From assembly GCF_029266855.1 (NCBI RefSeq), contig NZ_JAQSWB010000001.1, positions 186,001 to 250,000 of the forward strand: DNA of 64,000 bases, written 5' to 3'. Below, in pieces: positions 3,403 to 61,441 of the stretch. Below the pieces are notes generated by a model. The model searched no databases and was not told the DNA's origin. It saw only the letters and a program-made list of their open reading frames with translations. The number at the start of each line of letters is the position of its first letter. The first letter of the stretch is position 1. The stretch is from Fluviicola sp. GTDB lineage: Bacteria > Bacteroidota > Bacteroidia > Flavobacteriales_D > Crocinitomicaceae. Position numbers and translations under genes: made by a program.

Positions 3403-4908
3403 TTAATGTTTGATCAATCGTCTACAAGTGTTTTCTCTTTGATTCCCTAAGAAAATAAGCTGGTACACACCTGAAGCAAGATGTCCTAAGGATAAACTGG
3501 TAGTTTCGGATGCCGGGTAGCTTTCAATTAATCTTCCAGAAGCATCTCTCAACTGAATTTCAGTAATAGATTCATCTTCGGAGGAAATTGTTAGTTCATC
3601 CGAAAAAGGATTGGGGTAAATCGAAATCCCTTTCAAATTAGCTGTTTCTACACTCAAGCTCTGACTAATATCGAGATTCACCAGCATGAAATCTGCATCA
3701 GCACTCAATAACCTGGATGAACCTGCAACGAGGATTTGGCCTGTTCCTGAAAGCTTCATTGTTTGCAGGTAATCATTCCCGGTGGAAATATCGGTGGTGA
3801 AAGTGCCCGTTCCATTGAAACTATTGTCCAAACTTCCATCCGCGTTCAGGCGGGTAATTGAAAAGCCATAATTGTATTCGCTGATTTCCTGGCTACCCCC
3901 GATCAGGAATTTTCCGTCCGCCTGAAGTTCCAGGTCGGCAAATGGATAGGAGTGGTTCAGGATTCCGTTTGTTCCAAACGAGTTATCTAAACTTCCGTCC
4001 GGATTGATTTTGATGATGAGAGATGTTGCCGAATAACCGGAAAGAATAATTTTCCCATTGTCAGTTTCTTTGGCCCCAGACAGGAATTCCGTAACGGAAG
4101 GAAATGTATTGTGCAGATCCATGATGACTTTTCCATTTTGACCGAAACCAGGAACGAAATCCCCATTCAAATCAATTTTGCAATAAGTAAGTTTTGAATT
4201 ATTGAAGTCATTCCCGTCGTATCCGACACAAATAACCAACTGGTCACTTAACAGGATGGCTTCCCAGAGAATCATCGTATAAGAGGCATCTGAGAGAAAT
4301 ACCGAACCGTTGGTTCCGAAGGAAGAATCGAGGACCCCATTTGGATCGATCCTGCTGATTGTGCCCGTTCCGTAACTGTTTCCTGCCAATAGAACAGAGC
4401 CATCTCCCAGGATAATCATTGAAACAATGTGGCTATCCGAATGCGGCAGTCTGAAGACACCATTGATAGCGAAACTGCTGTCCAAATCGCCATTTGTATT
4501 AAAACGCGCAACAAAGGAGTTATAATCTCCCGGACCACTTTGTGATGGCCCCAGATAGACAGACCCGGAGACCAGTATCTTTCCGTCTGCCTGTAATTTG
4601 ATATCTAAAGGAAATTCCGAATAATCAATTGGAGTAGAAACTATTCCGTTTGTCCCGAAATTCGCCGCGATTGCACCTGTGTTTGTGTGTTTTGTAATTG
4701 TCAGACGGTAAATTCCGCTACCCCCACTTTCAATGCTATATCCCGCGCTAAAAATGTTTCCATCCGGATCAACTGCTATACTGTTAATTTCTGTGGTGTT
4801 CGGTGTTATGACAATCCCGCCATTTCCGAAATTAGAATCCAGGTTCACGTTTTGCCCGAAAACAGGGATGGAAAGTAAAATAAAGGAAAGTGTACTGATT
4901 CGTTTCAT
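3403..4908 (-). CDS. Delta-60 repeat T9SS-secreted protein (copy 1)
   Basis: 501 residues from ATG 4908, chosen because it opens a clear signal peptide (MKRISTLSFILLSIPVFGQ); a longer frame to 5049 has no signal. The body is made of about seven delta-60 repeats, each with the marks 'DGKILVSGS' and 'LDSSFGTNG', expected to form a beta-propeller. The last 70 or so residues are a T9SS type A sorting domain (YPNPFSDELTIS ... GVYQLIF ... KRLIKH-like). It is therefore likely exported through the outer membrane and attached to, or shed from, the surface. The next gene upstream is a close paralogue in the same orientation, so a tandem duplication is likely. Ligand unknown. Confidence 0.9.
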   Translation of the reverse strand: MKRISTLSFILLSIPVFGQNVNLDSNFGNGGIVITPNTTEINSIAVDPDGNIFSAGYSIESGGSGIYRLTITKHTNTGAIAANFGTNGIVSTPIDYSEFPLDIKLQADGKILVSGSVYLGPSQSGPGDYNSFVARFNTNGDLDSSFAINGVFRLPHSDSHIVSMIILGDGSVLLAGNSYGTGTISRIDPNGVLDSSFGTNGSVFLSDASYTMILWEAILLSDQLVICVGYDGNDFNNSKLTYCKIDLNGDFVPGFGQNGKVIMDLHNTFPSVTEFLSGAKETDNGKIILSGYSATSLIIKINPDGSLDNSFGTNGILNHSYPFADLELQADGKFLIGGSQEISEYNYGFSITRLNADGSLDNSFNGTGTFTTDISTGNDYLQTMKLSGTGQILVAGSSRLLSADADFMLVNLDISQSLSVETANLKGISIYPNPFSDELTISSEDESITEIQLRDASGRLIESYPASETTSLSLGHLASGVYQLIFLGNQRENTCRRLIKH

Positions 4909-44760: not shown

Positions 44761-45849
44761 CTAGTGGAATTCGTCTGAAAATAGGTGGAAACTTTCCTGT
44801 AAAAGGGGGAGGTTTTCGAAAGGAATCCTTTTTATTTTGAATGCCTTGTTTTGAATAATGACCAGACTTTCATCCCATTTGCACGAAATCTCACCATCGA
44901 GTGTAGTATACCTATGCGGAATGTGGGTATCTATTTTGTAGTCTTTAAACAGATCATCCTGCGACTGAAGGATCAGATAATGCTGACGGTGAATGAAGAG
45001 GTATTTGATTTGCGGATTTCCATAAACCCGGTAAGCACCATGATGTGCCAGGCGCGGAAATTGATCATCATTGAAGTTTCTGCTTGCAAGAGTGGGGTAA
45101 ATGCAGTCAGCGATGACGAGCAATGCGAAGAGGTATTTGATCACCCGGTGTTTTCTTGTGTCGTATAGCTGAATTTGCTTGCTTGAAAAACCAAAAACAC
45201 CCTTCCAGTTTTGATAGAAACTTAAACTGTAAATAAGGCTGAAGAGGAGGAGCGAACCGGACAGAAGTTTCACCGAGATATCAAACGAGAAATTGATTAG
45301 TACCACCTGCCCGAAAATAGCGATGCTGATTAATGAGGCTAAAAATCGGGTTCTCTTGAAAAGTAAAAGGACTGCTGCTAAAACTTCAATTATCCCCAAT
45401 ATAACGGTATAGGAAAATGAACTGCCGGCTAAAGACCAGTAAGCAATGTCTTTGGATAATTTCCCGAATGGAGTGGACAGGGTGTTCGGTTCAGGAAGGT
45501 AAAACTGCGCCTTTGTGATTTTATCCCAGCCGTATTTAAAAAGGAAGAAGAATAAAATAGCTGCAAGAATGGTTCTTAGAACTTCGGTAGTGCTCAGCTT
45601 CCATTTCTTGCAAACACGATTAATGAGCGGCGAGGAAAGAACTCCCAAAAGAAAACTGAGCGCGACCAGAACGTAGGTTCCATAAGTATCTGTTTCGAAG
45701 ATCAGGTCTTGGTCCATCGCTTTTAAAAGACCTGTAAATGGTTTTTGAATGAGTTTGAAGATCCCATCGAAAAGTGCATAATCGAAAGGAAGCAAGAGCA
45801 TCCACCATGCAGCGATCCCGATAAAACTCAGTTTCAGGTGCTCTTTCAT
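44761..45849 (-). CDS. DoxX-like polytopic membrane protein
   Basis: 362 residues with about six to seven hydrophobic segments between residues 8 and 260 (FIGIAAWWMLLLPFDYALF, YVLVALSFLLGVLSSPLI, TILAAILFFFLFKYGWDKI, TVILGIIEVLAAVLLLFKRT, LLSGSLLLFSLIYSLSFYQ, VIKYLFALLVIADCIYPTL). The block FKYGWDKITKAQFYLPEP followed by IIEVLAAVLLLF is reminiscent of DoxX-type proteins. The C-terminal 100 residues form a soluble domain (YRVYGNPQIKYLFIHRQHYL). The start overlaps the stop of the next upstream gene by 4 bases. It is the last gene of a three-gene envelope operon. Function unknown. Confidence 0.75.
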   Translation of the reverse strand: MKEHLKLSFIGIAAWWMLLLPFDYALFDGIFKLIQKPFTGLLKAMDQDLIFETDTYGTYVLVALSFLLGVLSSPLINRVCKKWKLSTTEVLRTILAAILFFFLFKYGWDKITKAQFYLPEPNTLSTPFGKLSKDIAYWSLAGSSFSYTVILGIIEVLAAVLLLFKRTRFLASLISIAIFGQVVLINFSFDISVKLLSGSLLLFSLIYSLSFYQNWKGVFGFSSKQIQLYDTRKHRVIKYLFALLVIADCIYPTLASRNFNDDQFPRLAHHGAYRVYGNPQIKYLFIHRQHYLILQSQDDLFKDYKIDTHIPHRYTTLDGEISCKWDESLVIIQNKAFKIKRIPFENLPLLQESFHLFSDEFH

Positions 45850-46370
45850 GTAGTAACCTGAGGTCTTAAGATCCGACTGAATAATCTCATTAACAACATT
45901 CCTCCTCCGGTAATTCCGAATAGGAATAGCAGGTAGGATTTTTTCTTTTTCCCGGGAGGATTTTGATTAACAGGTGTTTCCGATTCAATCGGTTTAATGG
46001 TTTCTATCTCTTGCAGTTGGAGGCCAGGAGTTTTTGGTCTTAATGAATCAGGAGAACCTTTGAAATTGATGTATTCAATGTGATCATATCGCGATCGTTT
46101 GATTGAATCAATATCCAGGTTGGAATTGATTCGGCCGCGAACTGTATCGTGATAAATGAACCCAGAGAATTCAGAAAAAACATTTACATAGGTTGAATCG
46201 TTTATACGGACAACCTGGATTAGTTGAGGGCCGGGTTCACCAAAATTGGTATTGGGATCCATAAAGAAATCCGCAGCGGATCCGGAATGGCTTTTGTGGG
46301 CAATGATTGCGGTTTGCGCTTGAACTGCCGAAGCAAGTAAACAAACGATTGATACAAGAATTGTTTTCAT
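45846..46370 (-). CDS. Small secreted protein with conserved C-terminal membrane tail (paralogue A)
   Basis: 174 residues. Signal peptide ends at AVQAQ, then the motif AIIAHKSHSGSAADFF, a beta-rich middle, a Pro/Glu/Thr-rich linker, and the tail KKSYLLFLFGITGGGMLLM followed by RLFSRIL. The tail (basic run, hydrophobic Gly-rich helix, basic end) and the HKSHSG motif recur in the next upstream gene. Probably periplasmic and anchored by the tail. Overlaps the DoxX-like gene by 4 bases, and the upstream paralogue stops only 2 bases before its start. I know no functional assignment. Confidence 0.78.
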   Translation of the reverse strand: MKTILVSIVCLLASAVQAQTAIIAHKSHSGSAADFFMDPNTNFGEPGPQLIQVVRINDSTYVNVFSEFSGFIYHDTVRGRINSNLDIDSIKRSRYDHIEYINFKGSPDSLRPKTPGLQLQEIETIKPIESETPVNQNPPGKKKKSYLLFLFGITGGGMLLMRLFSRILRPQVTT

Positions 46371-46372
46371 AG

Positions 46373-46942
46373 TTAAGCGATTGAAGAATGTATGTGTTTG
46401 GATCTTGCTAAAAGTTTCATCAACAGCATTCCGCCACCGGTGATTCCAAATAGGAACAGGAGGTATGACTTCTTTTTCTTCTTTGCAGGAGTTGCTTCTT
46501 GGTTGAGTTGTTGCTGAGATTCTAGTTGCCGTTTTTCAAGTTGTTCCTGTTTTTCTATTTCCTGCTTGTAGATTTCAAGATTTTCTGCTTTTTTGACGGA
46601 ATCGGCGTAGACATAGTGGAACATCATTGTTGAAAGACGCTTCTTGTTTGATAAAGTATCTACCTCAATAAGCTGTTGGTTCAGATCAGTAACTTCCAGG
46701 ATCATTATGGAATCATTCAACGGTTTGAAATTTTCTACCTTGTAAGGTTTTCGTTCGTATGTGATGTCCTTTGGTTGCTCAATTTGTTTTTCATAATCTA
46801 TTCTTCTCACACCAAAATTGCTGCTTGAAGCAATCAGGTAAGAACCGGAAGTTCCTGCATGACTTTTATGAGAAATTAATGGAGTTTGGGCATTTCCAAG
46901 TGATAGGAAAGCAGTAAAAGCAAGTATAATAAAGAATTTCAT
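46373..46942 (-). CDS. Small secreted protein with conserved C-terminal membrane tail (paralogue B)
   Basis: 189 residues from ATG 46942 (signal peptide MKFFIILAFTAFLSLGNAQ); a longer frame to 46972 adds ten residues before it. Mature protein starts TPLISHKSHAGTSGSYLIAS, matching the AIIAHKSHSGS motif of its neighbour. A long charged Gln/Glu/Lys coiled stretch (about 120-155) leads to the tail KKSYLLFLFGITGGGMLLM, identical over 19 residues with paralogue A. At DNA level the two tails differ at many third codon positions, so the protein sequence is being conserved. First gene of the three-gene unit. Confidence 0.78.
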   Translation of the reverse strand: MKFFIILAFTAFLSLGNAQTPLISHKSHAGTSGSYLIASSSNFGVRRIDYEKQIEQPKDITYERKPYKVENFKPLNDSIMILEVTDLNQQLIEVDTLSNKKRLSTMMFHYVYADSVKKAENLEIYKQEIEKQEQLEKRQLESQQQLNQEATPAKKKKKSYLLFLFGITGGGMLLMKLLARSKHIHSSIA

Positions 46943-47301
46943 GTGTTGTTGTTTGAAAATGGATACATCCATATCTCAATTTGGTTCAATTCATTTTTTA
47001 CAATAGGCACGTGATTAATTATGGTCTACTGTAATTCCAAAACCAATAAAAAACTCCCGGTTGCCGCCGAGAGTTCAGTTGTATTCCTACAACATTGTTT
47101 TGTGTATATTTCCCTTTACACATCGATGAAATGCAGATAGGTGAAAAAGTAACGGATTAATTTTGTTTACAGTGGTGAAAACCGGTATTTCAGAATGGAT
47201 TTGTAAACCTTTTAGTTAATTTGCTTACTAAATACAGGTAACTAACTCATCGTGAATTGATTATCCCTATTTATTAGTGAGTTAACTAAATCGTTAACAA
47301 T
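46943..47301. other. Gene-free 359-base region holding a terminator and promoter
   Basis: It contains the terminator at 47048-47075 and AT-rich promoter sequence for the paralogue operon. I see no coding frame, tRNA or other structure. Confidence 0.55.
47048..47075 (-). terminator. Intrinsic terminator downstream of the CorC/CNNM gene
   Basis: Minus strand AACTCTCGG (47075-47067), loop CGGCAA, CCGGGAGTT (47060-47052) with one G-T pair, followed by TTTTATT. It is about 225 bases past the stop at 47302, implying a long 3' UTR. Confidence 0.78.
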
Positions 47302-51369: not shown

Positions 51370-51825
51370 ATGATACCAAAAAGATCCAAATATGCTATTC
51401 AGGCTTTGAAGTGTTTAGCGAAGGTTTATCGCGATAAGAAGCATTTGTCCATTGCCAGCATTGCCGAGGAGGAAAAAATTCCTCGTAAGTTCCTGGAAGC
51501 AATTCTGCTACAATTGCGAAATGGCGGCATGGTTGGAAGTAAAATGGGTGCGAATGGCGGTTATTTCCTGGTTAAACACCCGGATGAAATTGTACTGAGC
51601 AACATTATTCGGGCAACCGGTGGACCAATCGCTTTATTACCTTGCGTAAGCTTGAATTTTTACGAGGAATGTGCTGAATGTCCGCATGAAGATTTGTGCG
51701 GATTGCATGATGTAATGCTCGAAGTGCGTGAAGCAAGTATCCATATTTTATCAAAAACAAGTTTGGCTGATTTAATTTTACGCGAAAAAAAATTAGCACG
51801 AAAAGCTGAAAGCAAACGTAAATAG
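51370..51825 (+). CDS. Rrf2 family transcriptional regulator, probable regulator of sulfur assimilation
   Basis: 151 residues. Winged helix in the first 70 (SKYAIQALKCLAKVYRDKKH, then the recognition part IPRKFLEAILLQLRNGGMVG). Four cysteines at 92, 101, 104 and 110 (LPCVSLNFYEECAECPHEDLC) make a possible Fe-S or cysteine-sensing site, comparable to IscR (three) or other Rrf2 members. It lies immediately upstream of the sulfate assimilation operon, like regulators of the CymR type, and a candidate operator is at 51842-51868. The regulatory target is inferred from position. Confidence 0.9.
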   Translation: MIPKRSKYAIQALKCLAKVYRDKKHLSIASIAEEEKIPRKFLEAILLQLRNGGMVGSKMGANGGYFLVKHPDEIVLSNIIRATGGPIALLPCVSLNFYEECAECPHEDLCGLHDVMLEVREASIHILSKTSLADLILREKKLARKAESKRK

Positions 51826-51888: not shown

Positions 51889-51920
51889 CTTGTTCGTTTA
51901 GAATTCAGCCCTTTACTTTG
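51889..51920 (+). promoter_or_regulatory. Candidate promoter of the sulfate operon leader
   Basis: CTTG (51889-51892), 20-base spacer, TTACTTTG (51913-51920), one mismatch from TAnnTTTG. It would place the start of transcription near 51927, about 13 bases before the leader reading frame. Confidence 0.5.
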
Positions 51921-51939
51921 CACTATCAAAAAAACAACA

Positions 51940-52011
51940 ATGAATCAAAAGAACTTCATGCTTCATATGCAGATGTGCTGTATGCCTGAAAAGGTATTGC
52001 GGAAGGAATAG
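51940..52011 (+). CDS. Met/Cys-rich leader peptide of the sulfate assimilation operon
   Basis: A 23-codon frame, ATG 51940 to TAG 52011, containing MLHMQMCCMPEK: five Met and two adjacent Cys in 23 residues. It lies between the predicted promoter and an intrinsic terminator at 52035-52069, 77 bases before the first structural gene. Its last codons (CGGAAGGA at 52000-52007) can pair with the 5' arm of that terminator. A ribosome stalled at the Cys codons (51976-51981) would leave them free, whereas one reaching the stop codon would cover them. This is the layout of an amino-acid attenuation leader peptide. Not experimentally proven. Confidence 0.65.
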   Translation: MNQKNFMLHMQMCCMPEKVLRKE

Positions 52012-52047
52012 TTATAAATTAACAATGAGTTATGACCCTTCTTCCGT
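51999..52047 (+). promoter_or_regulatory. Predicted antiterminator pairing
   Basis: CGGAAGGA (52000-52007) can pair with TTCTTCCG (52039-52046) in eight base pairs including one G-T, sequestering the 5' half of the terminator stem. It is mutually exclusive with the terminator. Confidence 0.55.
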
Positions 52048-52069
52048 TTCTGCGGGAGAAGGGTTTTTT
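52035..52069 (+). terminator. Attenuator terminator before the sulfate operon
   Basis: ACCCTTCTTCCG (52035-52046), loop TTTCTG, CGGGAGAAGGGT (52053-52064), a 12-bp stem with one G-T pair, followed by TTTTTTATTT. It stands upstream of the operon's first gene, not behind a gene, so it must be read through or prevented for expression. Confidence 0.85.
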
Positions 52070-52088
52070 ATTTAGCAAAACAGGAATA

Positions 52089-52967
52089 ATGAAAAAGGTA
52101 TATATAAACGAATACGGACCAAGAGTTTCAGCTGCGGTTTATGGTTTTTGGAGATGGACAGAGGAAGATCTTCAGGATACTAAAAACTTTGAAGATGTAG
52201 TTTTGTTTACCAGGGAATTGGGAATCGATACGTATGATTTGAGCCCGGGACATGGAGCGTATGAACTGGAAACACAATTTGGGAAGCTCATTGAGTCGGG
52301 AGTGATCAATCAGTCTGAACTGGTTCTTTCCAAGAAAGTTGGCCTTCGTGAATATTCCGGAGCGTACGGAAGCGGAATTTATTATGATTTAAGCCCACAG
52401 TATATAACGACAAGCGTAGAAGAATCCTTGAAGCGATTGAAAAGGGATAAGATTGAAATTCTAATTCTGGAAAACTTCGATTTTCTCTCAGATTTTGAAC
52501 AAACTGCTTCTGCATTGTTGAAACTGCAGCGAAGTGGGAAAATTTCTTACATAGGAGTTTCAAACTTTAATGTGTTTCAGCAACGTTTGCTTTCGGCTTC
52601 TCTTTCACAACCGATCATCACGAACCATTTGGAGTTGAATTTGCTCCAAACGGAAGCACTTCATGATGGCAGGTATGATTTTATCCGCGAGCAGCATGGC
52701 CGTGCAATGGCATTTTCTCCTTTGGCAGATGGCCGGATCCTGTTGGGTGAAGATGCTCAGGCAGTTAAATTACGCCTGGCACTCATTGAGATCGGTAAAA
52801 AGTACGAGGCAAATGTAGAGCAAATAGCAGTTGCATGGCTGAATAAACTGGGTGCTCTTCCAATCATTGGAAGTAAAGAAAAACGCCGAATTCAAAACGC
52901 TGCAACAGCTCATACGTTTGAACTTTCCCAGGAAGATTGGTACTTCCTCTATAACGCAACGAAATAA
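52089..52967 (+). CDS. Aldo/keto-reductase-fold protein with altered catalytic residues
   Basis: 292 residues from ATG 52089; the frame's first ATG (52032) lies inside the terminator and is rejected. The chain aligns throughout with the YdhF-type aldo/keto reductases (GFWRWTEEDL, LKLQRSGKISYIGVSNFNVF, AFSPLADGRILL, LPIIGSKEKRRIQNA). Of the catalytic Asp-Tyr-Lys-His set, Asp (IDTYDLSPGHG) and Lys (LVLSKKVG) remain. The Tyr position is Ser, and the His position, normally LIHRPD, reads LENFDF. It may be a non-reducing binding or regulatory protein. First gene of the sulfate operon, 3 bases before the sulfite reductase gene start. Confidence 0.85.
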   Translation: MKKVYINEYGPRVSAAVYGFWRWTEEDLQDTKNFEDVVLFTRELGIDTYDLSPGHGAYELETQFGKLIESGVINQSELVLSKKVGLREYSGAYGSGIYYDLSPQYITTSVEESLKRLKRDKIEILILENFDFLSDFEQTASALLKLQRSGKISYIGVSNFNVFQQRLLSASLSQPIITNHLELNLLQTEALHDGRYDFIREQHGRAMAFSPLADGRILLGEDAQAVKLRLALIEIGKKYEANVEQIAVAWLNKLGALPIIGSKEKRRIQNAATAHTFELSQEDWYFLYNATK

Positions 52968-52969
52968 TC

Positions 52970-55075
52970 ATGGAAAGTTTCAGAACAGAATACGAACACC
53001 AGGTTGAAGCGAAAAAACTGAGGATTGAAAAAGACATTCTGGAGTTAGGCGATAAAATTGCTGCTTTTAAAGACGGTAAGATTCCGGAGGACAAGTTTCG
53101 TTCTTTGAGATTGGCACGTGGAGTTTATGGTCAACGTCAGCTTGGAGTTCAAATGATCCGGATCAAACTCCCTTACGGAAAAGTAACTTCTAATCAATTG
53201 CGCAGAATTGCCCAGGTGAGTGATGAATACAGTACCGGAAGGCTGCACATCACAACCCGGCAGGATATCCAGATTCATCATGTTTCTTTAGACAGAACAC
53301 CACAGTTGTGGGCGGATTTGGAAAAAGACGATGTGACTTTACGGGAGGCATGCGGTAATACTGTTCGAAACGTGACTGCAAGTGATAATGCGGGAATTAA
53401 TCCGGATGAATTATTTGATGTGACTCCTTATGCGGAACAGGTCTTTCAGTACTTTTTGCGAAAACCCTTTGGCCAGGAACTGGGAAGGAAAATTAAAATT
53501 GCTTTTAGCTCGGATGACCGGGATGATGCGCTCACTTTTATTCATGATTTTGGATTTATTCCACGTATTGAATCGGAGACAAAAGGATTCAAAGTTATGA
53601 TTGGAGGAGGGTTGGGAGCACAACCATTTTTAGCGCATATAGCTTATGAGTTTTTGCCCGCAGATGAATTGATACCATTCATTGAAGCCTCCATTCGTGT
53701 ATTTGATCGCCACGGTGAACGAAAAAGCAGAAATAAAGCACGGATGAAATACCTCATTTCTAAAATTGGTTTGGAAACTTTTTTAGACTTGGTGAAACAA
53801 GAGAAAACAGCGGTTCAGTTTGGTTCTCCGGAAGATCAGCTAAAGGTGATTGATACTTTTGAATACGAGAAACTCGATCCGATTAGCCCAGACAAATTGT
53901 TCACGGACGACCAGGATTATAATCAATGGATCCGGAGCAACGTCTCTCTTCAGAAGCAAGCCGGTTATCTGGCAGTATACATCAAAGTTCCATTGGGTGA
54001 TTTTTACACGGATCAGGCTCGTTCGCTGGCTTATTTGCTGGATAGCTTGAAGCTTCCGGAACTTCGTTTTACGGTCAATCAGAATATTCAATTAAGAGGA
54101 GTAAGAGCAGAGCAATTACAAACGGTTTATTCACAGCTTTCACAGCTGAACTTGAATGAATCGGGATATGGCGGATTGGCTGATATCACTGCTTGTCCGG
54201 GAACGGATACCTGTAACCTGGGGATTTCGAACAGTACGAATGTTGCATTGGAACTGGAATCATTTATACGATTAAACTATCCGAAACTGATTGAAGAAAC
54301 AGGGATTAGTATCAAAATCAGTGGTTGTATGAATTCCTGCGGACAGCATGGATTGGCTCAGATCGGCTTTCACGGGAGTTCCATTAAAACTAAAGAAGGA
54401 ACGCTTCCTGCTTTGCAAGTATTGCTGGGTGGAGGAAAAACAGGAGCCGGTGCAGGAAGAATTGCAGAAAAAGTAATTAAGGTTCCCAGTAAACGAGTGT
54501 TAAAAGTTGTGCAGGCAATTCTGGATGATTACCTCCGATTTCATGAAAACGAGGAAGAATTCAATGCTTATTATGACAAACAGGGAAATACCTATTTCTA
54601 CAATTTGCTGAAACCTTTAACGGATTTAGAGAATCTAAACTCAAACGAATACCTGGATTGGGGACAAGATGAACGGTTTGCAACTGCAATTGGTGTCGGA
54701 GAATGCGCCGGGGTTATCATCGACCTGGTTGCGACCTTATTTTTTGATGCGGAAGAAAAATTGTCTTCTGCCCGTGAAGCGTTGAAGGAAAGCCGTTATG
54801 CGGATGCAATTTATTATGGTTATTCTGCAGGAATTCATTCTGCAAAAGCGAAATTGATTGAAAAGGGAATCCGATGTAACTCACAACAAGAAATTTTAAC
54901 TGATTTCGATGCGCATCTTGGAATGGATTTCGGTTGGTCTGAGCAGAATAGTTTCAGTGAATTCATTTTGAGAATTAACAAGGAAAAAGCGTCAGAATAC
55001 TTTGCGAACCAATATGTAACTGAAATAGAAGAATTAATGTTTCAACTAAGTCCGTCGACTGCCAAAGATTTGTAG
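52970..55075 (+). CDS. Ferredoxin-type siroheme sulfite (nitrite) reductase with C-terminal HEPN-like domain
   Basis: 701 residues. Two ferrite-reductase-like halves (about 50-260 and 320-520), with the siroheme/4Fe-4S cysteines at 409, 415, 453 and 457 (TACPGTDTCNLG and SGCMNSCGQHG). Siroheme-contacting arginines are likely in the RLHITTRQDIQIHHV block. Residues of about 585-700 are an added helical domain (AREALKESRYADAIYYGYSA) resembling HEPN, known in Bacteroidota versions of this enzyme. The setting in a sulfate operon points to sulfite as the substrate: SO3(2-) to sulfide with six electrons from ferredoxin. Confidence 0.93.
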   Translation: MESFRTEYEHQVEAKKLRIEKDILELGDKIAAFKDGKIPEDKFRSLRLARGVYGQRQLGVQMIRIKLPYGKVTSNQLRRIAQVSDEYSTGRLHITTRQDIQIHHVSLDRTPQLWADLEKDDVTLREACGNTVRNVTASDNAGINPDELFDVTPYAEQVFQYFLRKPFGQELGRKIKIAFSSDDRDDALTFIHDFGFIPRIESETKGFKVMIGGGLGAQPFLAHIAYEFLPADELIPFIEASIRVFDRHGERKSRNKARMKYLISKIGLETFLDLVKQEKTAVQFGSPEDQLKVIDTFEYEKLDPISPDKLFTDDQDYNQWIRSNVSLQKQAGYLAVYIKVPLGDFYTDQARSLAYLLDSLKLPELRFTVNQNIQLRGVRAEQLQTVYSQLSQLNLNESGYGGLADITACPGTDTCNLGISNSTNVALELESFIRLNYPKLIEETGISIKISGCMNSCGQHGLAQIGFHGSSIKTKEGTLPALQVLLGGGKTGAGAGRIAEKVIKVPSKRVLKVVQAILDDYLRFHENEEEFNAYYDKQGNTYFYNLLKPLTDLENLNSNEYLDWGQDERFATAIGVGECAGVIIDLVATLFFDAEEKLSSAREALKESRYADAIYYGYSAGIHSAKAKLIEKGIRCNSQQEILTDFDAHLGMDFGWSEQNSFSEFILRINKEKASEYFANQYVTEIEELMFQLSPSTAKDL

Positions 55076-55106: not shown

Positions 55107-55883
55107 ATGAAGAATAAAGAAAATACGCACATTTCATTGGTTGGAGCAGGACCCGGAGATGTCGAATTAATTTCTGTAAAGGGATTGAATCGCTTGAAAA
55201 AAGCAAAAGTAGTGCTTTATGATGCCCTGGTCAATGAAGAGCTATTGACTTATGCTCCTACTGCCCGAAAGATTTTTGTAGGTAAGCGCAAAGGATTTAA
55301 AACCTATGAGCAGGAACAAATTAATCAATTAATGATTGATTGTGCGAATGAGTTTGGAGATGTTGTTCGCCTGAAAGGTGGAGATTCGTTCGTTTTTGGA
55401 AGAGGTATGGAAGAAATTATATTTGCAAAACAACATCACATTACCACCGAGGTGATACCCGGAATTTCGAGTTCTATATCGGTTCCTGCATTAGCAAATA
55501 TTCCTGTAACGCACCGTGGAATGAGCAATTCATTTTTTGTGCTTTCCGCTACTTTGTCTGATGGCTCCTTAAATCCTGAATTGAAAAAAGCAGCGGATCT
55601 GGATGCTACAGTGGTGATTCTGATGGGTTTGAGTCAGGTTGAAAAAATTGCAGACTTGTTTCATGGAAGTGGAAAATCACAAACTCCGGTAGCGGTAATC
55701 TATAATGGTTCTTTGCCGGAACAGAAAACAATTGTTGGAACAATCGAAACAATTTCCGGATTACATGAACAGGCAGCAATAAAAGGTCCTGGTGTCATTG
55801 TGATCGGTGAAGTAGTTTCATTTGCATCGGCTGATCCGTATGAGTTTTGTACAAATTCATCTGAAACAATTCACCATTCATGA
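55107..55883 (+). CDS. cobA: Uroporphyrinogen-III C-methyltransferase
   Basis: 258 residues. Family marks: ISLVGAGPGDVELISVKGLN at the start, VVRLKGGDSFVFGRG, and PGISSSISVPALANIPVTHRG. It uses two SAM molecules to make precorrin-2 from uroporphyrinogen III, the first step to siroheme needed by the adjacent sulfite reductase. The stop overlaps the start of the next gene by 4 bases, the gene for the following siroheme steps. Usual symbol cobA or sumT; here it serves siroheme. Confidence 0.95.
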   Translation: MKNKENTHISLVGAGPGDVELISVKGLNRLKKAKVVLYDALVNEELLTYAPTARKIFVGKRKGFKTYEQEQINQLMIDCANEFGDVVRLKGGDSFVFGRGMEEIIFAKQHHITTEVIPGISSSISVPALANIPVTHRGMSNSFFVLSATLSDGSLNPELKKAADLDATVVILMGLSQVEKIADLFHGSGKSQTPVAVIYNGSLPEQKTIVGTIETISGLHEQAAIKGPGVIVIGEVVSFASADPYEFCTNSSETIHHS

Positions 55884-57361
55884 GGGAGGCAAATACCAAT
55901 GAGCTTTTTCCTATTTTCCTGAAAACCCAGGAATTAAATGTCTTGCTTGTTGGTGGTGGAGAAGTAGCGCTGGAAAAATTAAAAGCATTATTAGTGAATT
56001 CTCCGGATACGCCTGTTTCTGTAGTTGCGCGTGAATATTCGGATGCATTTATCGATTTTGCCGAACGGCACGAAAGTGTGTTTTTGGAAGTGCGCAACTT
56101 CAAACCGTCAGACATAGAAGGGAAACAGCTCATTATTACCGCCTTAAATGATGTGGAAACTTCAGAATACATCATGAATTTGGCGAGTGATTCGGGAATC
56201 CTGTATAATGCTGCAGATAAACCCGAACTGTGTAACTTTTACCTGGGGTCTGTGGTTCGAAAAGGACATTTGAAAATCGGGATTTCAACAAACGGAAGAT
56301 CACCGACACTCGCTAAACGGTTGAAAGAAATTTTGGATGAAAACCTGCCGCTTGAATTAAATGATTCGGCCTTGCAACTGAATGAGTTCAGAAATTATTT
56401 AAAGGGAGATTTTAAGCAAAAGGTAAAAAAAATGAATCAGGCCACAGCCGCTTTACTGGTGAAAGCAGATAGTCCCTGGTACTTTTTTTCTCTACGGAAA
56501 TTGTCTTTGTATTTGCTTGGAATTATAGGGGTTATGCTCACAGGACATTTGCTTTTCACTTTAATTCCTTTGGAAAGTATATGGAATTCAGCATCAGCTG
56601 CAATAGATTCTTTGACGATTGATTTCGCTTATTTCGTTTTAGCAGGGTTTATTGCACAAATGATAGACGGAGCTTTAGGAATGGCTTATGGGGTTAGCGC
56701 CACGACTTTCTTATTGTCGTATGGAATTACTCCGGCAGTTTCAAGTATGGCGGTACATGCCTCGGAGATTTTTACGAGTGGTGTTTCGGGGATTATGCAT
56801 TTGCGTTTCGGGAATGTGAATAACCGTTTATTCAGGTCTATTTTAATTCCCGGAGTTTTAGGAGCAATTGTGGGAGCTTATGTATTAACGGAATTCGAAT
56901 CATACAATGATATTATCAAACCGATAGTGAGCGCATATACCTTGTTTTTGGGAGGATTGATTATTTACAAGGTTCTTCGGAAGAAACAAGCCCGAAAAAA
57001 AGTGACAAAAGTTGGTTGGCTGGGACTTTTGGGAGGTTTTTTGGATTCCATTGGCGGTGGTGGCTGGGGACCGGTTGTTTCCTCTACTTTGATTGCAAGG
57101 GGAAAACATCCTAGAATGATTGTAGGATCGGTCAATCTTGCCGAGTTTTTTGTGTCCCTGGCAAGTTCATTTACTTTTTTCACTGTCATTGGCACATCGA
57201 ATGTGTGGCAACCGCTTGCAGGATTGGTTTTAGGAGGAGTTTGCGCAGCACCGATTGCAGCCTACTTGGCCTCTAAGTTGAATATCAAAGCAATGATGCT
57301 GTTTGTGGGAATTGTTGTGGTCATAGTCAGCCTGCGCAATTTTCTGACCTTAATATTTTAA
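55880..57361 (+). CDS. Siroheme synthase domain (Met8-like) fused to TSUP sulfite/sulfate transporter
   Basis: 493 residues in two parts. Residues 1-200 match precorrin-2 dehydrogenase/sirohydrochlorin ferrochelatase: NAD loop LLVGGGEVALEKLKALL, and NAADKPELCNFYLGSVVRKG with the catalytic-type Asp113, then GISTNGRSPTLAKRLKE. After a membrane helix (about 208-230), residues 248-493 are a TauE/SafE (TSUP) transporter with repeated motifs (FIAQMIDGALGMAYGVSATT and GFLDSIGGGGWGPVVSST). One polypeptide may thus complete siroheme synthesis and move sulfite, sulfate or a related anion across the membrane. Overlaps cobA by 4 bases. Confidence 0.9.
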   Translation: MREANTNELFPIFLKTQELNVLLVGGGEVALEKLKALLVNSPDTPVSVVAREYSDAFIDFAERHESVFLEVRNFKPSDIEGKQLIITALNDVETSEYIMNLASDSGILYNAADKPELCNFYLGSVVRKGHLKIGISTNGRSPTLAKRLKEILDENLPLELNDSALQLNEFRNYLKGDFKQKVKKMNQATAALLVKADSPWYFFSLRKLSLYLLGIIGVMLTGHLLFTLIPLESIWNSASAAIDSLTIDFAYFVLAGFIAQMIDGALGMAYGVSATTFLLSYGITPAVSSMAVHASEIFTSGVSGIMHLRFGNVNNRLFRSILIPGVLGAIVGAYVLTEFESYNDIIKPIVSAYTLFLGGLIIYKVLRKKQARKKVTKVGWLGLLGGFLDSIGGGGWGPVVSSTLIARGKHPRMIVGSVNLAEFFVSLASSFTFFTVIGTSNVWQPLAGLVLGGVCAAPIAAYLASKLNIKAMMLFVGIVVVIVSLRNFLTLIF

Positions 57362-57364
57362 AAA

Positions 57365-58051
57365 ATGATTGAAAAAATAAAGACAATACCTTATACAACC
57401 CTGGAAGATTATTTGTTCCGGATCGCTTCACAGGAAGGAGTAAGGGTGGCCTTTTCTTCCAGTTTGAGTTGGGAAGACCAAGTTTTGACTCATGTGATCT
57501 ATTCGCAGGAATTGCCCATCCGTGTATTTACATTGGATACCGGAAGATTGTTCCCTGAAACATACAGTGTGATCGAAGCGACACGCCAACGGTATCAAAA
57601 AGAACTGGAAATTTATTTCCCTGAACATCAGGCGGTGGAACAGTTAGTGACCAGGAAAGGCCCGATTAGTTTCTATGAATCACTGGAAAACAGGAAGGAA
57701 TGTTGTTTCATAAGAAAAGTAGAACCCTTGAACCGGGCATTGAAAGATGTAGATGTTTGGGTAACTGGGCTTCGAGCAGATCATTCGGAAAACAGATCCG
57801 GGTTGGAATTGGTTGAATGGGATGAACAACGCCAGATCGTAAAGATAAATCCACTTGCAAATTGGAGCCTGGAAGAAGTGAAAGCATACATCAGGCAATA
57901 CAATATTCCTTATAATCCGCTGCAGGATCGCGGATTTGTAAGCTTGGGCTGTCAACCTTGCACACGTGCAATTAAAGAAGGTGAATCTTTCCGTGCAGGA
58001 AGATGGTGGTGGGAAGATAATTCAAAGAAAGAGTGCGGATTACATAGTTAA
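57365..58051 (+). CDS. cysH: Phosphoadenylyl/adenylyl-sulfate reductase, APS type
   Basis: 228 residues. PP-loop-like SSSLSWEDQVLTHVI, GLRADHSENRSG, and four cluster cysteines at 113, 114 (RKECCFIRK), 196 and 199 (LGCQPCTR), plus the catalytic Cys224 in ECGLH. The four extra cysteines bind a 4Fe-4S cluster and mark enzymes that reduce APS directly, unlike E. coli PAPS reductase. That agrees with the absence of an APS kinase gene or domain in this operon. Three bases after the transporter fusion gene. Confidence 0.94.
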   Translation: MIEKIKTIPYTTLEDYLFRIASQEGVRVAFSSSLSWEDQVLTHVIYSQELPIRVFTLDTGRLFPETYSVIEATRQRYQKELEIYFPEHQAVEQLVTRKGPISFYESLENRKECCFIRKVEPLNRALKDVDVWVTGLRADHSENRSGLELVEWDEQRQIVKINPLANWSLEEVKAYIRQYNIPYNPLQDRGFVSLGCQPCTRAIKEGESFRAGRWWWEDNSKKECGLHS

Positions 58052-58196: not shown

Positions 58197-59096
58197 ATGA
58201 AAGATTATTTAGACGAATTAGAGGCGGAAGCCATTTATATCCTGAGAGAAGTAGCAGGGCAGTTCGACCGGCCGGCTTTATTATTCTCAGGAGGAAAGGA
58301 CAGCATTTGTTTGGTGCATTTGGCGCTGAAGGCATTCAGACCGGGAAAATTTCCTTTTCCGCTGGTGCATGTAGATACAGGACACAATTTCCGGGAAGCA
58401 TTGGATTTTAGAGATTCCTTAGCAGCTGAACTTGGAGAACAATTAATCGTCCGAAATGTGGTGGATACAATTGCCAAAAATAAATTACAGGATGCGAAGG
58501 GAAAGTTTCCAAGTAGAAATGCATTACAAACTCATACACTTCTTGATGTAATCGAAGAATTTGAATTTGATGCGTGTATCGGCGGAGCACGAAGAGATGA
58601 AGAAAAAGCCAGGGCAAAAGAACGTGTGTTTTCTGTTCGGGATGAATTCGGTCAATGGGATCCGAAATTACAAAGACCGGAGTTATGGAGTATTTACAAT
58701 GGCAAAATTGAGAAAGGTGAAAACGTCCGGGTGTTTCCAATCAGCAACTGGACAGAACTGGATGTCTGGAATTACATCAAACGCGAAAACATTCAGTTGC
58801 CGCAGATCTACTTTACACATGAACGCGAGTGTGTTATAACGGAACATGGACAATTGATGGCAAACAACGAATTCCTGAACCTGGATGAAACAGACCGGAT
58901 CGTAACCAAGAAAGTTCGTTACCGCACAGTAGGTGATATGACTTGTACAGCGGCGGTTGAAAGTGAGGCCTTCACTGTTGATGATATTATTGCAGAAATT
59001 TCAGATGCAAAGATTTCGGAAAGGGGCGCAACGCGCATGGATGACCGGATATCAGAAGCAGCAATGGAAGACCGAAAGAAGGGAGGATATTTTTAA
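58197..59096 (+). CDS. cysD: Sulfate adenylyltransferase subunit 2
   Basis: 299 residues, the usual length. PP-loop pyrophosphatase motif ALLFSGGKDSICLVHLALKA, followed by GGARRDEEKARAKERVFSVR and the C-terminal RTVGDMTCTAAVESEA block. CysD catalyses AMP transfer from ATP to sulfate, giving APS, driven by GTP hydrolysis in CysN. It is 145 bases from cysH; the gap holds palindromic repeats. Confidence 0.97.
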   Translation: MKDYLDELEAEAIYILREVAGQFDRPALLFSGGKDSICLVHLALKAFRPGKFPFPLVHVDTGHNFREALDFRDSLAAELGEQLIVRNVVDTIAKNKLQDAKGKFPSRNALQTHTLLDVIEEFEFDACIGGARRDEEKARAKERVFSVRDEFGQWDPKLQRPELWSIYNGKIEKGENVRVFPISNWTELDVWNYIKRENIQLPQIYFTHERECVITEHGQLMANNEFLNLDETDRIVTKKVRYRTVGDMTCTAAVESEAFTVDDIIAEISDAKISERGATRMDDRISEAAMEDRKKGGYF

Positions 59097-59174: not shown

Positions 59175-60416
59175 ATGGATTTATTACGATTTTTCACAGC
59201 AGGAAATGTAGATGACGGGAAAAGCACTTTAATCGGACGATTACTTTACGACAGTCACTCAATTTCCACCGATATTATTGAAACACTGACACGTCAGAGT
59301 AAAACAAGGGGGGAAAACACCACCATAGACCTTGCTTTGCTGACAGATGGATTACGTGCGGAACGTGAACAGGGAATTACGATTGACGTGGCATACAAGT
59401 ATTTCTCTACAGACAAGCGAAAGTTTATCATTGCGGATACTCCCGGACATGCTCAGTATACACGGAACATGTTTACAGGAGCTTCAACTGCACAGCTGGC
59501 AATTATTCTCGTAGATGCCAGGAATGGGATTACCGATCAAACCAAACGACACAGTATTATTTCTGCAACGCTGGGAATTCCCCGTGTATTGCTGTGCATC
59601 AATAAAATGGACCTGGTTGCTTACAGCGAAGAACGGTTCAATGAAATTGTTTCCGAATACAACGTGTTTTCGCAGTTGATCGGTTTGAATCAAGTAGATT
59701 TCATTCCGGCCTCAGCTTTGGCAGGAGACAATGTTGTTCATCGGTCCGAAAGGCTGGATTGGTTTAAAGGATTACCCTTACTGGAATATCTGGAAACCGT
59801 AGAAACAGACCAGAGAGAACAGCTTGAAGCAGCGCGTTTCCAGGTACAATACGTTATTAGGCCTCAAACAGAAAACCTTCACGATTATAGAGGATATGCG
59901 GGAAGTATTTTGAGCGGTGAATTTCATACCGGAGATGAGGTACAGATTCTTCCATCCGGTTTAACTACGCGGATTTCCCGGATTGAATCCAATTTGAAGG
60001 ATGTTCCTTCTGCTGGGAAAAATCAGCCGATAGTAATGCACCTGGAAGATGATCTGGATGTTAGCCGGGGAAATACCATCGTTCCAAAAAATGCAGCTCC
60101 TGTTACGGAAAGATCATTGGAGGCAACCATTTGCTGGATGGACCATGCGGCATTTAATTCCACTCAGAAATTTCTGTTGCAGCAAAACAGTTTTCGGACC
60201 AAAGCAGTGATCAAAGCTGTTCATTCCAAAATTGATATTCACAGTTTCCGGGATTTGGAAAGTGACGGAAGTTTGAATTTGAATGAACTGGCTAAAGTTT
60301 CAATTAAAACAGCAGAAGCCGTCAGTTTTGATCCGTTCAGGGATTTACCGAAATCGGGAGCCTTTATTTTAATAAATGAAAATACAAACCAAACAGTGGC
60401 CGCAGGTGTCATTTAA
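59175..60416 (+). CDS. cysN: Sulfate adenylyltransferase subunit 1 (GTPase)
   Basis: 413 residues. GTPase motifs GNVDDGKSTLIGRLL, DTPGHAQYTRNM and NKMDLV, then EF-Tu-like beta-barrel domains. It stops where CysN ends, with no fused APS kinase (CysC) domain, so the operon supplies APS, not PAPS, to the reductase. CysN uses GTP to drive APS formation by CysD. Gap of 78 bases to cysD contains an inverted repeat. Confidence 0.96.
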   Translation: MDLLRFFTAGNVDDGKSTLIGRLLYDSHSISTDIIETLTRQSKTRGENTTIDLALLTDGLRAEREQGITIDVAYKYFSTDKRKFIIADTPGHAQYTRNMFTGASTAQLAIILVDARNGITDQTKRHSIISATLGIPRVLLCINKMDLVAYSEERFNEIVSEYNVFSQLIGLNQVDFIPASALAGDNVVHRSERLDWFKGLPLLEYLETVETDQREQLEAARFQVQYVIRPQTENLHDYRGYAGSILSGEFHTGDEVQILPSGLTTRISRIESNLKDVPSAGKNQPIVMHLEDDLDVSRGNTIVPKNAAPVTERSLEATICWMDHAAFNSTQKFLLQQNSFRTKAVIKAVHSKIDIHSFRDLESDGSLNLNELAKVSIKTAEAVSFDPFRDLPKSGAFILINENTNQTVAAGVI

Positions 60417-60430
60417 AACGAATAAAAATC

Positions 60431-61441
60431 ATGATTGAAACAGATATCATCATCATTGGAGCCGGTCCGGTTGGACTTTTCACCGTTTTTGAAGCAGGAT
60501 TATTGAAATTGCGCTGTCATTTAATTGATTCGTTACCGCAACCCGGCGGACAATGCTCGGAGATCTATCCCAAAAAACCGATCTACGACATTCCGGGATT
60601 TCCATCTGTTTTAGCCGGGGACTTAGTGACTAATCTTATGGAACAGGCTGCGCCTTTCAAACCAGGATTTACTTTGGGAGAAGCTGCATCTACGATTGAG
60701 AAACAAGCAGATGGTTCCTTCGTTGTTTCGACAGTTAAAGGTACCCGGCACAAAGCTCCGGTAGTAATGATTGCCGGCGGACTCGGAGTATTTGAACCAC
60801 GAAAACCGCCTATCGAAAGTATTGAGCTTTTTGAAGAAAAAGGAGTAGATTACATCATTAAAGACCCGGAAGTTTTCAGAGGAAAGAAATGTGTGATTGC
60901 CGGAGGTGGTGATTCGGCATTGGATTGGTCAATTTACCTGGCTGAAAATAACATTGCTTCGGAAGTGACTTTAGTACACCGCAGTGCTTCTTTTCGCGGA
61001 CATTTAGATTCTGTACAGAAAGTAATTGATATGGCCGATTCCGGGAAAATAGCCCTGATAACAGAAGCCGAAGTAACCGGGTTGAAAGGAGGAAAACAGT
61101 TGGAGGAAGTGGTTATCAGTCATTCCAAAAATGGGGAACTGATCACAAAAGCGGATCATTTTATTCCGTTGTTTGGTTTAAAGCCATCTTTGGGACCGAT
61201 CGCCGACTGGGGACTGGAAATAGAGAAGAATGCAATTAAGGTGGATACTCTGGATTATTCAACGAATATCCCGGGAATTTATGCGATCGGTGATGTCAAT
61301 ACTTATGAGAATAAGCTGAAATTGATCTTGTGCGGTTTCCATGAAGGTACTTTGGCTGTTCAGTCAGCGTTTGCACGGATCCATCCGGATAAAAAGAATA
61401 TCCTGAAATATACTACTGTGAATGGTGTGAATGGATTTTAA
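60431..61441 (+). CDS. Ferredoxin/flavodoxin-NADP reductase-like flavoprotein (thioredoxin-reductase fold)
   Basis: 336 residues. FAD loop DIIIIGAGPVGLFTVFEAG, NADPH loop VIAGGGDSALDWSIYL and a final FAD contact YAIGDVNTYENKL. No CxxC, so it is not a thioredoxin reductase; the sequence matches the YumC-type ferredoxin-NADP reductases. In this operon it would recharge the ferredoxin used by the sulfite reductase. Last gene of the unit, 14 bases after cysN, and followed by a strong terminator. Confidence 0.92.
   Translation: MIETDIIIIGAGPVGLFTVFEAGLLKLRCHLIDSLPQPGGQCSEIYPKKPIYDIPGFPSVLAGDLVTNLMEQAAPFKPGFTLGEAASTIEKQADGSFVVSTVKGTRHKAPVVMIAGGLGVFEPRKPPIESIELFEEKGVDYIIKDPEVFRGKKCVIAGGGDSALDWSIYLAENNIASEVTLVHRSASFRGHLDSVQKVIDMADSGKIALITEAEVTGLKGGKQLEEVVISHSKNGELITKADHFIPLFGLKPSLGPIADWGLEIEKNAIKVDTLDYSTNIPGIYAIGDVNTYENKLKLILCGFHEGTLAVQSAFARIHPDKKNILKYTTVNGVNGF

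What the first reader, a model, noticed from the sequence alone, without database searches (positions are those of the whole stretch)
51926..52088. Leader-peptide attenuator in front of a sulfate assimilation operon
Seen: a 23-codon frame with five Met and adjacent Cys-Cys codons, a strong intrinsic terminator 24 bases after its stop codon, and an 8-bp complementarity between the end of the frame (52000-52007) and the terminator's 5' arm (52039-52046). The antiterminator and terminator cannot form together. Established: this is the logic of trp/his-type attenuation, where a ribosome stalled at codons for the scarce amino acid prevents termination. Inferred: low charged Cys-tRNA (or Met-tRNA) turns on sulfate reduction. 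I know of no well-described attenuator of this kind for assimilatory sulfate reduction in Bacteroidota, though I cannot rule out a description.
Basis: partly seen in the sequence, partly recalled or inferred. Interest (0 to 1): 0.88.

Follow-up and report, generated by a model that had tools for sequence, protein, structure and literature searches.

The report
Cysteine-codon attenuator before sulfate-assimilation genes
A short leader reading frame with paired cysteine codons, an antiterminator and a transcription terminator sits before a sulfate-assimilation operon in a Fluviicola-like bacterium; similar leaders recur in many Bacteroidia families, which suggests that these bacteria sense cysteine shortage through a stalled ribosome.

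Summary
Observation confirmed. 51940-52011 encodes MNQKNFMLHMQMCCMPEKVLRKE; a strong terminator follows (52034-52069). A further hairpin holds a Cys codon, as in trp.

It is conserved. All 11 genus genomes with the sulfite-reductase gene carry it; the 3 without have no strong match. Of 141 non-redundant Bacteroidia sulfite-reductase operons, 67 are preceded by a Cys-clustered frame plus terminator, against 3 of 384 control genes (p 8.5e-41). Only Cys and Met are strongly enriched among 20 amino acids. Complementarity to the terminator's 5' arm far exceeds that at ordinary terminators (mean z -2.2 vs 0.04).

Best reading: trp-type ribosome-mediated attenuation read by Cys-tRNA, perhaps Met-tRNA too. 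Translation and termination are inferred.

Known relatives: Cys leaders in Actinobacteria and before cysS in Rhodobacterales. My searches found none in Bacteroidota. Side finding: poly-Cys frames directly follow a SAM-I riboswitch in 9 of 10 scanned loci of a second type, but in 0 of 30 other SAM-I loci.

Against: 74 of 141 lack the composite; no two-sided compensatory pairs in the genus; the ribosome-free fold also favours the antiterminator before the terminator is complete.

The parts
51370..51825 (+). Rrf2-family regulator gene upstream of the leader (neighbour, not part of the attenuator)
   Evidence: Pfam PF02082, E 1.1e-31
51890..51921 (+). Promoter-like element: TTG (51890-51892) and TTTACTTTGC (51912-51921)
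   Evidence: TTACTTTGC present in 10 of 10 genus leaders printed; the reading as a Bacteroidota promoter is recalled knowledge, not a call
51940..52011 (+). Leader frame MNQKNFMLHMQMCCMPEKVLRKE*
51976..51981 (+). Tandem Cys codons TGC TGT (codons 13-14), proposed stall site
   Evidence: at least two adjacent Cys codons in 9 of 10 genus leaders
51978..52002 (+). Hairpin 1 (1:2 type) holding the second Cys codon and the first bases of the antiterminator 5' strand, -10.4 kcal/mol
51999..52047 (+). Antiterminator: 51999-52007/52039-52047, 52011-52017/52030-52036, 52019-52021/52026-52028; -16.0 kcal/mol
   Evidence: complementarity test across families
52034..52069 (+). Intrinsic terminator hairpin with T run, mutually exclusive with the antiterminator
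52089..52967 (+). Aldo/keto reductase, first gene of the operon (the longer start at 52032 in the ORF list lies between the leader frame and the terminator; the related genes start at the equivalent of 52089)
52970..55075 (+). Sulfite reductase (NIR_SIR domains, C-terminal HEPN match)
55107..55883 (+). Tetrapyrrole methylase (uroporphyrinogen methyltransferase-like, siroheme)
55880..57361 (+). Siroheme-synthase N-terminal domains fused to a TauE/SafE exporter domain
57365..58051 (+). PAPS/APS reductase (CysH-like)
58197..59096 (+). Sulfate adenylyltransferase subunit (CysD-like)
   Evidence: Pfam PAPS_reduct domain; CysD is my reading
59175..60416 (+). CysN-like GTPase subunit
   Evidence: Pfam GTP_EFTU and GTP-eEF1A_C; CysN is my reading
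60431..61441 (+). Pyridine-nucleotide-disulphide oxidoreductase

Best explanation
This is a ribosome-mediated (trp-type) transcription attenuator for sulfate assimilation. Transcription starts just upstream of the frame. With enough Cys-tRNA the ribosome passes the Cys pair and reaches the stop codon, covers 51999-52007, and the terminator forms, so the operon is off. When Cys-tRNA is short the ribosome stalls at 51976-51981; its front edge (near 51990) leaves 51999-52007 free, the antiterminator forms as the polymerase makes 52039-52047, and the operon is read through. Anatomy, conservation and geometry are shown; promoter use, translation, stalling, termination and the direction of the response are inferred. 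Met codons cluster with Cys codons in these leaders, so the switch may also feel Met-tRNA.
For: Frame, Cys pair, antiterminator, hairpin 1 and terminator in the window. Covariance model: strong match (E 1.4e-21 to 7.0e-8) in 11 of 11 genus genomes that have the sulfite reductase (10 of these leaders built the model); of the 3 genomes without it, one has no match and two have E 0.034 and 0.051. Frames with >=3 Cys in 5 residues: 44/141 before sulfite-reductase operons vs 5/384 control genes, p 1.6e-22, mean 0.9 of 141 in 20 rounds of shuffling, 5 of 141 on the reverse strand; Met 20/141 vs 3/384, p 1.1e-9; the other 18 amino acids give p >= 0.024 uncorrected. Cys frame (>=2 in 5) plus terminator 67/141 vs 3/384, p 8.5e-41. 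Complementarity of the 53 nt before the terminator to its 5' arm: mean z -2.20 (70 leaders) vs 0.04 (150 gene-end terminators), p 3e-20. Geometry: antiterminator strand starts a median 24.5 nt (quartiles 22-29) after the first clustered Cys codon and 20.5 nt before the end of the stop codon in 58 of 67 leaders with a duplex of -10 kcal/mol or better; terminator starts 23 nt after the stop. Such frames also precede tetrapyrrole methylase genes in 9 loci and a gene I read as cysC in 3 of 30 cysD loci.
Against: 74 of 141 operons lack the composite, and in 6 of 24 families no sampled locus has even a loose Cys frame (f27 0/5, f77 0/4, f16 0/2, f46 0/2, f18 0/1, f73 0/1). RNAalifold on 10 genus antiterminators found 0 of 11 pairs with two-sided compensation. 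Codon changes in the frame are mostly nonsynonymous, so the peptide gives no sign of selection. L011 has only one Cys codon. Without any ribosome the RNA up to 52050 also folds into the antiterminator next to a shortened hairpin 1, and once the terminator is complete it is more stable in every state folded; so the outcome depends on kinetics and the fate of untranslated RNA is not predicted. No transcript or ribosome data.
Confidence: 0.9

Rival explanations
1. Dual sulfur amino-acid sensor: the same attenuator responds to shortage of either Cys-tRNA or Met-tRNA, because Met codons are part of the stall site.
For: Met is 10.1% of residues (first residue left out) in 70 Cys leaders with a terminator vs 1.9% in control short frames, concentrated at -3 to +5 of the first clustered Cys; leaders were picked by Cys and terminator only. 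Met clusters 20/141 vs 3/384.
Against: Some leaders carry Cys clusters without neighbouring Met (for example L045, L061). Some Met codons may serve as start sites or be shaped by hairpin 1. SAM-I riboswitches in the class mostly precede genes I read as methionine genes, so Met has its own sensor.
Confidence: 0.3
2. Nascent-peptide sensing: the Met/Cys-rich peptide binds copper, zinc or an oxidant and arrests the ribosome, rather than codon-level starvation.
For: Met- and Cys-rich composition could bind soft metals; the upstream gene is of the Rrf2 family, which is known to include iron-sulfur regulators (recalled).
Against: The peptides differ widely and share little beyond Cys/Met clustering; the controlled genes serve sulfate reduction, not metal resistance.
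Confidence: 0.05
3. Ordinary terminator of the Rrf2 transcript with a chance frame; the operon is controlled by other means.
For: The Rrf2 gene lies upstream, with a 263-nt gap to the first operon gene; the terminator could end its transcript.
Against: Only 19 nt lie between terminator and first gene, leaving little room for a promoter; frame, Cys codons and complementarity are conserved and enriched.
Confidence: 0.03

Closest known systems
trp/his-type leader-peptide attenuators of Proteobacteria (recalled)
   Same: Short frame with tandem regulatory codons, 1:2, 2:3 and 3:4 hairpins, intrinsic terminator before the first gene
   Different: Cysteine codons and sulfate assimilation; Bacteroidota
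uORFC-8-2 motif before cysS in Rhodobacterales (PMC8632094; passages seen)
   Same: Predicted Cys attenuator: tandem Cys codons usually at positions 14-15, first stem holds the Cys codons, run of U consistent with an intrinsic terminator
   Different: Controls cysteinyl-tRNA synthetase in alphaproteobacteria; no Met clustering in the passages seen
Cys leader frames before cys operons of Mycobacterium and P. acnes and before cbs of B. longum (PMC1262725; passages seen); polycysteine short frames of mycobacteria (Canestrari 2020: title seen in the reference list of PMC13236596; the paper itself is not held)
   Same: Runs of Cys codons in a frame before cysteine/sulfur genes; cysteine-responsive according to that title
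   Different: No conserved terminator hairpin reported; leaderless (title) and described as translation attenuation; Cys run near the stop codon
SAM-I riboswitch (RF00162)
   Same: Present in many genomes of the class and stands directly before the poly-Cys frames of a second type
   Different: No Rfam match in the window; a metabolite aptamer, not a codon sensor

Membership tests
Ribosome-mediated (trp-type) transcription attenuator | Short frame with tandem codons for the pathway's amino acid | tested here: met
Ribosome-mediated (trp-type) transcription attenuator | Intrinsic terminator between frame and first gene | tested here: met
   70 of 88 Cys frames in the 141-locus set
Ribosome-mediated (trp-type) transcription attenuator | Antiterminator that excludes the terminator | tested here: met
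   predicted by folding and complementarity
Ribosome-mediated (trp-type) transcription attenuator | Stall site leaves the antiterminator strand free, stop-codon ribosome covers it | tested here: met
   window: strand starts 23 nt after the first Cys codon; relatives: 44 of 58 leaders meet both limits set
Ribosome-mediated (trp-type) transcription attenuator | Covariation supporting the alternative stems | tested here: inconclusive
   one-sided changes only, 0 of 11 pairs two-sided
Ribosome-mediated (trp-type) transcription attenuator | Translation of the frame and starvation-dependent read-through | not testable with these tools
   needs RNA-seq, ribosome profiling or reporters
uORFC-8-2 | Lies before cysS in Rhodobacterales | tested here: not met
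   gene content; paper passages
Mycobacterial Cys leader frames | No terminator hairpin, Cys run near the stop codon | tested here: not met
   terminator present; nine codons lie between the Cys pair and the stop
SAM-I riboswitch or other Rfam family | Match at the curated score | tested here: not met
   0 matches in the window

The most novel reading that the evidence does not exclude
Bacteroidia hold a widespread family of sulfur amino-acid attenuators, without a match in Rfam where scanned, that read Cys and Met codons together; in Pontibacter-like and some other lineages it is joined to a SAM-I aptamer, so that one leader RNA combines a metabolite signal (SAM) with a tRNA-charging signal (poly-Cys frame) before sulfate-assimilation genes.
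Probability: 0.4. Interest if true: 0.78.

Novelty: new member of a known kind. Interest (0 to 1): 0.64.

Why it matters
I know of no described RNA switch for assimilatory sulfate reduction in Bacteroidota, and the searches named below found none. The finding gives a simple, testable rule (Cys shortage, ribosome stall, read-through) that seems to hold in many families. It suggests a division of labour: Cys leaders for sulfate assimilation, SAM-I riboswitches mostly for methionine genes. It also points to many short frames of likely regulatory role (88 by a loose rule in 141 loci); whether annotation holds them was not checked.

Tried and rejected
Extra copies in the genus: the covariance model gave secondary matches (E 7e-5 to 0.09). 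Nine of these (L250-L258) were fetched and looked like ordinary gene-end or chance terminators with no Cys-rich frame beside them; the two weaker matches in the window's own genome on C3 and C10 were not read. Only 150 first-look candidates per genome were scored, so further copies cannot be excluded.

Genus-level covariation: tried with RNAalifold, no two-sided changes. In one search the script cut L009 at an earlier GCGG, so hairpin 1 of L009 was not properly assessed; hairpin 1 is clear in 8 of 10 and weak in L011.

Peptide-level selection: tried, not supported. Sigma-70 promoter scan: 0 found, which covers only that consensus. Leaders before PF01053 genes (the 30 best loci from 40 genomes): 3 of 30 loci held Cys-clustered frames, 150-970 nt from the gene and chance-like by eye. 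In the 30 cysD loci of the same held such frames, 3 of them before the gene I read as cysC and 1 unrelated. RNA families in 10 loci whose operon has no Cys frame: SAM-I in 4 and Flavo-1 in 2; their target genes were not examined.

Rows dropped: 236 of 238 loci had a sulfite-reductase frame; 198 remained after removing identical ones, 144 after k-mer thinning and a length limit, 141 with 250 nt upstream. One search lists frames with >=2 Cys in 5 for 124 of 198, chance frames included; I relied on the controlled counts instead. Control genes exclude those labelled as sulfur genes by BLAST to the window but keep some possible members (the L161 frame before a homoserine-dehydrogenase-like gene, and L158), which makes the test conservative. 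Three of 70 leaders were too short for the duplex position tests.

Literature: searches; only open-licence PMC papers are held, so absence is weak evidence. A Flavobacterium psychrophilum study reports strong clues for leader-peptide attenuation before amino-acid biosynthesis operons; the passages seen do not name cysteine operons, and its supplements could not be read (PMC9723704).

Full report
What is there. The window lies in a Fluviicola-like genome (related records include Fluviicola chungangensis and Fluviicola sp.). Between an Rrf2-type regulator gene and an operon for sulfate assimilation (aldo/keto reductase, sulfite reductase, tetrapyrrole methylase, siroheme-synthase domain fused to a TauE exporter, CysH-, CysD- and CysN-like proteins, a disulphide oxidoreductase) is a 263-nt gap. 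It holds a 23-codon frame, MNQKNFMLHMQMCCMPEKVLRKE, at 51940-52011 and a 14-pair terminator with a T run. No Rfam family matches the window.

Structure. The terminator hairpin is -22.1. A first hairpin, -10.4, contains the second Cys codon and the first bases of the antiterminator strand. If a ribosome is placed on either Cys codon with its front edge 12 nt past the codon, the RNA up to the terminator loop folds into the antiterminator; if placed on the stop codon, that strand is covered and only the terminator remains (the footprint is recalled, not measured). Two results cut the other way: with no ribosome at all the RNA up to 52050 also folds into the antiterminator beside a shortened hairpin 1, and the complete terminator is more stable than the antiterminator in every state folded. 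The switch must therefore be kinetic, and the fate of untranslated RNA is not predicted.

Conservation in the genus. Leader frames at the same place read MIQRNFMLQMQMCCMSQKEMRKE, MIQKNFMLQMQMCCMSQKEMRKE, MIKRNFMRNMYMQLCCMSRLGQRKV, MIKKNFMRQMPMQLCCMSRMGQRKE, MMRKNFMRNMSMQLCCMSLKGQRKV, MIQRNFMHNMQICCMSVKRRTAGGIII, MNKKFFHKAMCCCMRGMGLRME, MNKQFFHQAMCCCMPEKGLRME and, divergent, MNTHNRHNTMCSWMMAFYEGLREG. GCGG, GAGTT and CCCTTCT...AGAAGGGTTTT are invariant in ten aligned leaders. A covariance model from these ten finds a strong match in all 11 genomes of 14 that have the sulfite reductase; of the 3 without it, two give E 0.034 and 0.051 and one nothing. Codon differences are mostly nonsynonymous while adjacent Cys codons stay in 9 of 10. 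RNAalifold gives one-sided pair changes only, 0 of 11 pairs two-sided, so formal covariation is not shown.

Conservation beyond the genus. From 238 loci, 144 non-redundant sulfite-reductase loci were kept and 141 had enough upstream sequence. Frames with at least 3 Cys in 5 residues precede 44 of 141 against 5 of 384 control genes of the same loci (odds ratio 34, p 1.6e-22); shuffled regions give 0.9 of 141 on average over 20 rounds and the reverse strand 5 of 141. The same test over all 20 amino acids gives Met as the only other strong signal (20/141 vs 3/384, p 1.1e-9); Asn and Leu reach p 0.024 and 0.041 uncorrected. With at least 2 Cys in 5, 88 leaders were taken, 70 of them followed by a terminator of -8 kcal/mol or better. 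The composite is 67/141 against 3/384 (p 8.5e-41).

The alternative stem is a property of the class. The 53 nt before the terminator are complementary to its 5' arm with mean z -2.20 (70 leaders), against 0.04 for 150 gene-end terminators of the same loci (Mann-Whitney p 3e-20). In the 58 of 67 leaders with a duplex of -10 kcal/mol or better the antiterminator strand starts a median 24.5 nt after the first clustered Cys codon (quartiles 22 and 29), 17 nt after the last, and 20.5 nt before the end of the stop codon; 44 of 58 meet both limits set for stalling (at least 9 nt after the last clustered Cys codon) and masking (-35 to +12 of the stop). In the window the first distance is 23 nt.

Composition. 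In the 70 leaders Met makes up 10.1% of residues after the first, against 1.9% in control frames; it clusters from -3 to +5 around the first clustered Cys codon. Arg is common at +6 to +8, which fits a purine-rich antiterminator strand. Frames were taken from the farthest start codon, so some N-terminal parts may not be translated.

Which genes. Besides the sulfite-reductase operon, Cys-clustered frames were seen before tetrapyrrole-methylase genes in 9 loci, before a CysC-like gene in 3 of 30 cysD loci, before cysH (L179, L213, L230) and once before a homoserine-dehydrogenase-like gene (L161). The names CysC and homoserine dehydrogenase are my reading of the printed N-terminal residues, not a search.

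A second type. In 13 loci the frame ends in a run of 5-10 Cys, 141-448 nt before the gene; a terminator-like match within 420 nt was seen in 5 of 13, within 100 nt of the stop in 2 (L042, L230). In 9 of 10 such loci scanned, a SAM-I riboswitch aptamer ends 2-19 nt before the frame; L062 has none, and L039, L044 and L051 were not scanned. The 30 best-scoring SAM-I loci from 148 genomes of the class, mostly before genes that I read as metH and cystathionine-type genes, have no such frame within 350 nt (0 of 30). In 20 loci mostly of the first type only one SAM-I match was found, in L041 just before a separate poly-Cys frame. The window's genome has two SAM-I matches, both outside the window.

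Where it is missing. Of 24 families sampled, 18 have at least one locus with a loose Cys frame (chance frames included); 6 have none (f27 0/5, f77 0/4, f16 0/2, f46 0/2, f18 0/1, f73 0/1), and others are mixed, such as f63 4/12 and f24 2/8.

Known work. Cys frames before cys operons of Mycobacterium and P. acnes and before cbs of B. longum were reported without terminators (PMC1262725, passages). Tandem Cys codons with a probable terminator before cysS in Rhodobacterales were predicted as an attenuator (PMC8632094, passages). A 2010 survey said that leader-peptide systems had been shown only in Proteobacteria and Actinobacteria before its own Firmicutes case, ermC aside (PMC2965389, passages). 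For Bacteroidota I found general remarks on leader peptides (PMC9723704, PMC7366714, passages) and none on a cysteine attenuator.

Verdict. It is a new member of a known kind, with wide though patchy distribution in Bacteroidia, Met clustering, and a SAM-I-linked sister type as the parts that would interest a specialist.

Noticed in passing
L034, L040, L042, L046, L056, L066, L179, L213, L230: Poly-Cys short frames (6-10 Cys in a row near the stop) start 2-19 nt after a SAM-I riboswitch aptamer, before sulfite-reductase or cysH genes; 0 of 30 other SAM-I loci show this.
   Followed up: partly
L036, L041, L049, L050, L053, L080, L147, L155, L156: A second Cys-rich frame (for example MKKNYIHIKYEYCCCCMIMNSLA in L080) lies just before the tetrapyrrole methylase gene.
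   Followed up: no
L161, upstream of position 3604: Frame ending MCCCCCMCMC before a gene whose start resembles homoserine dehydrogenase.
   Followed up: no
window 52970-55075: Sulfite reductase carries a C-terminal HEPN-domain match (residues 590-642, 25.9 bits, cut-off 22).
   Followed up: no
window 55880-57361: Siroheme-synthase N-terminal domains fused to a TauE/SafE sulfite-exporter domain in one 493-residue protein.
   Followed up: no
window 45846-46972, minus strand: Two adjacent genes whose products share a HKSH motif near the N-terminus and a C-terminal KKKKSYLLFLFGITGGGMLLM stretch.
   Followed up: no
   Followed up: no
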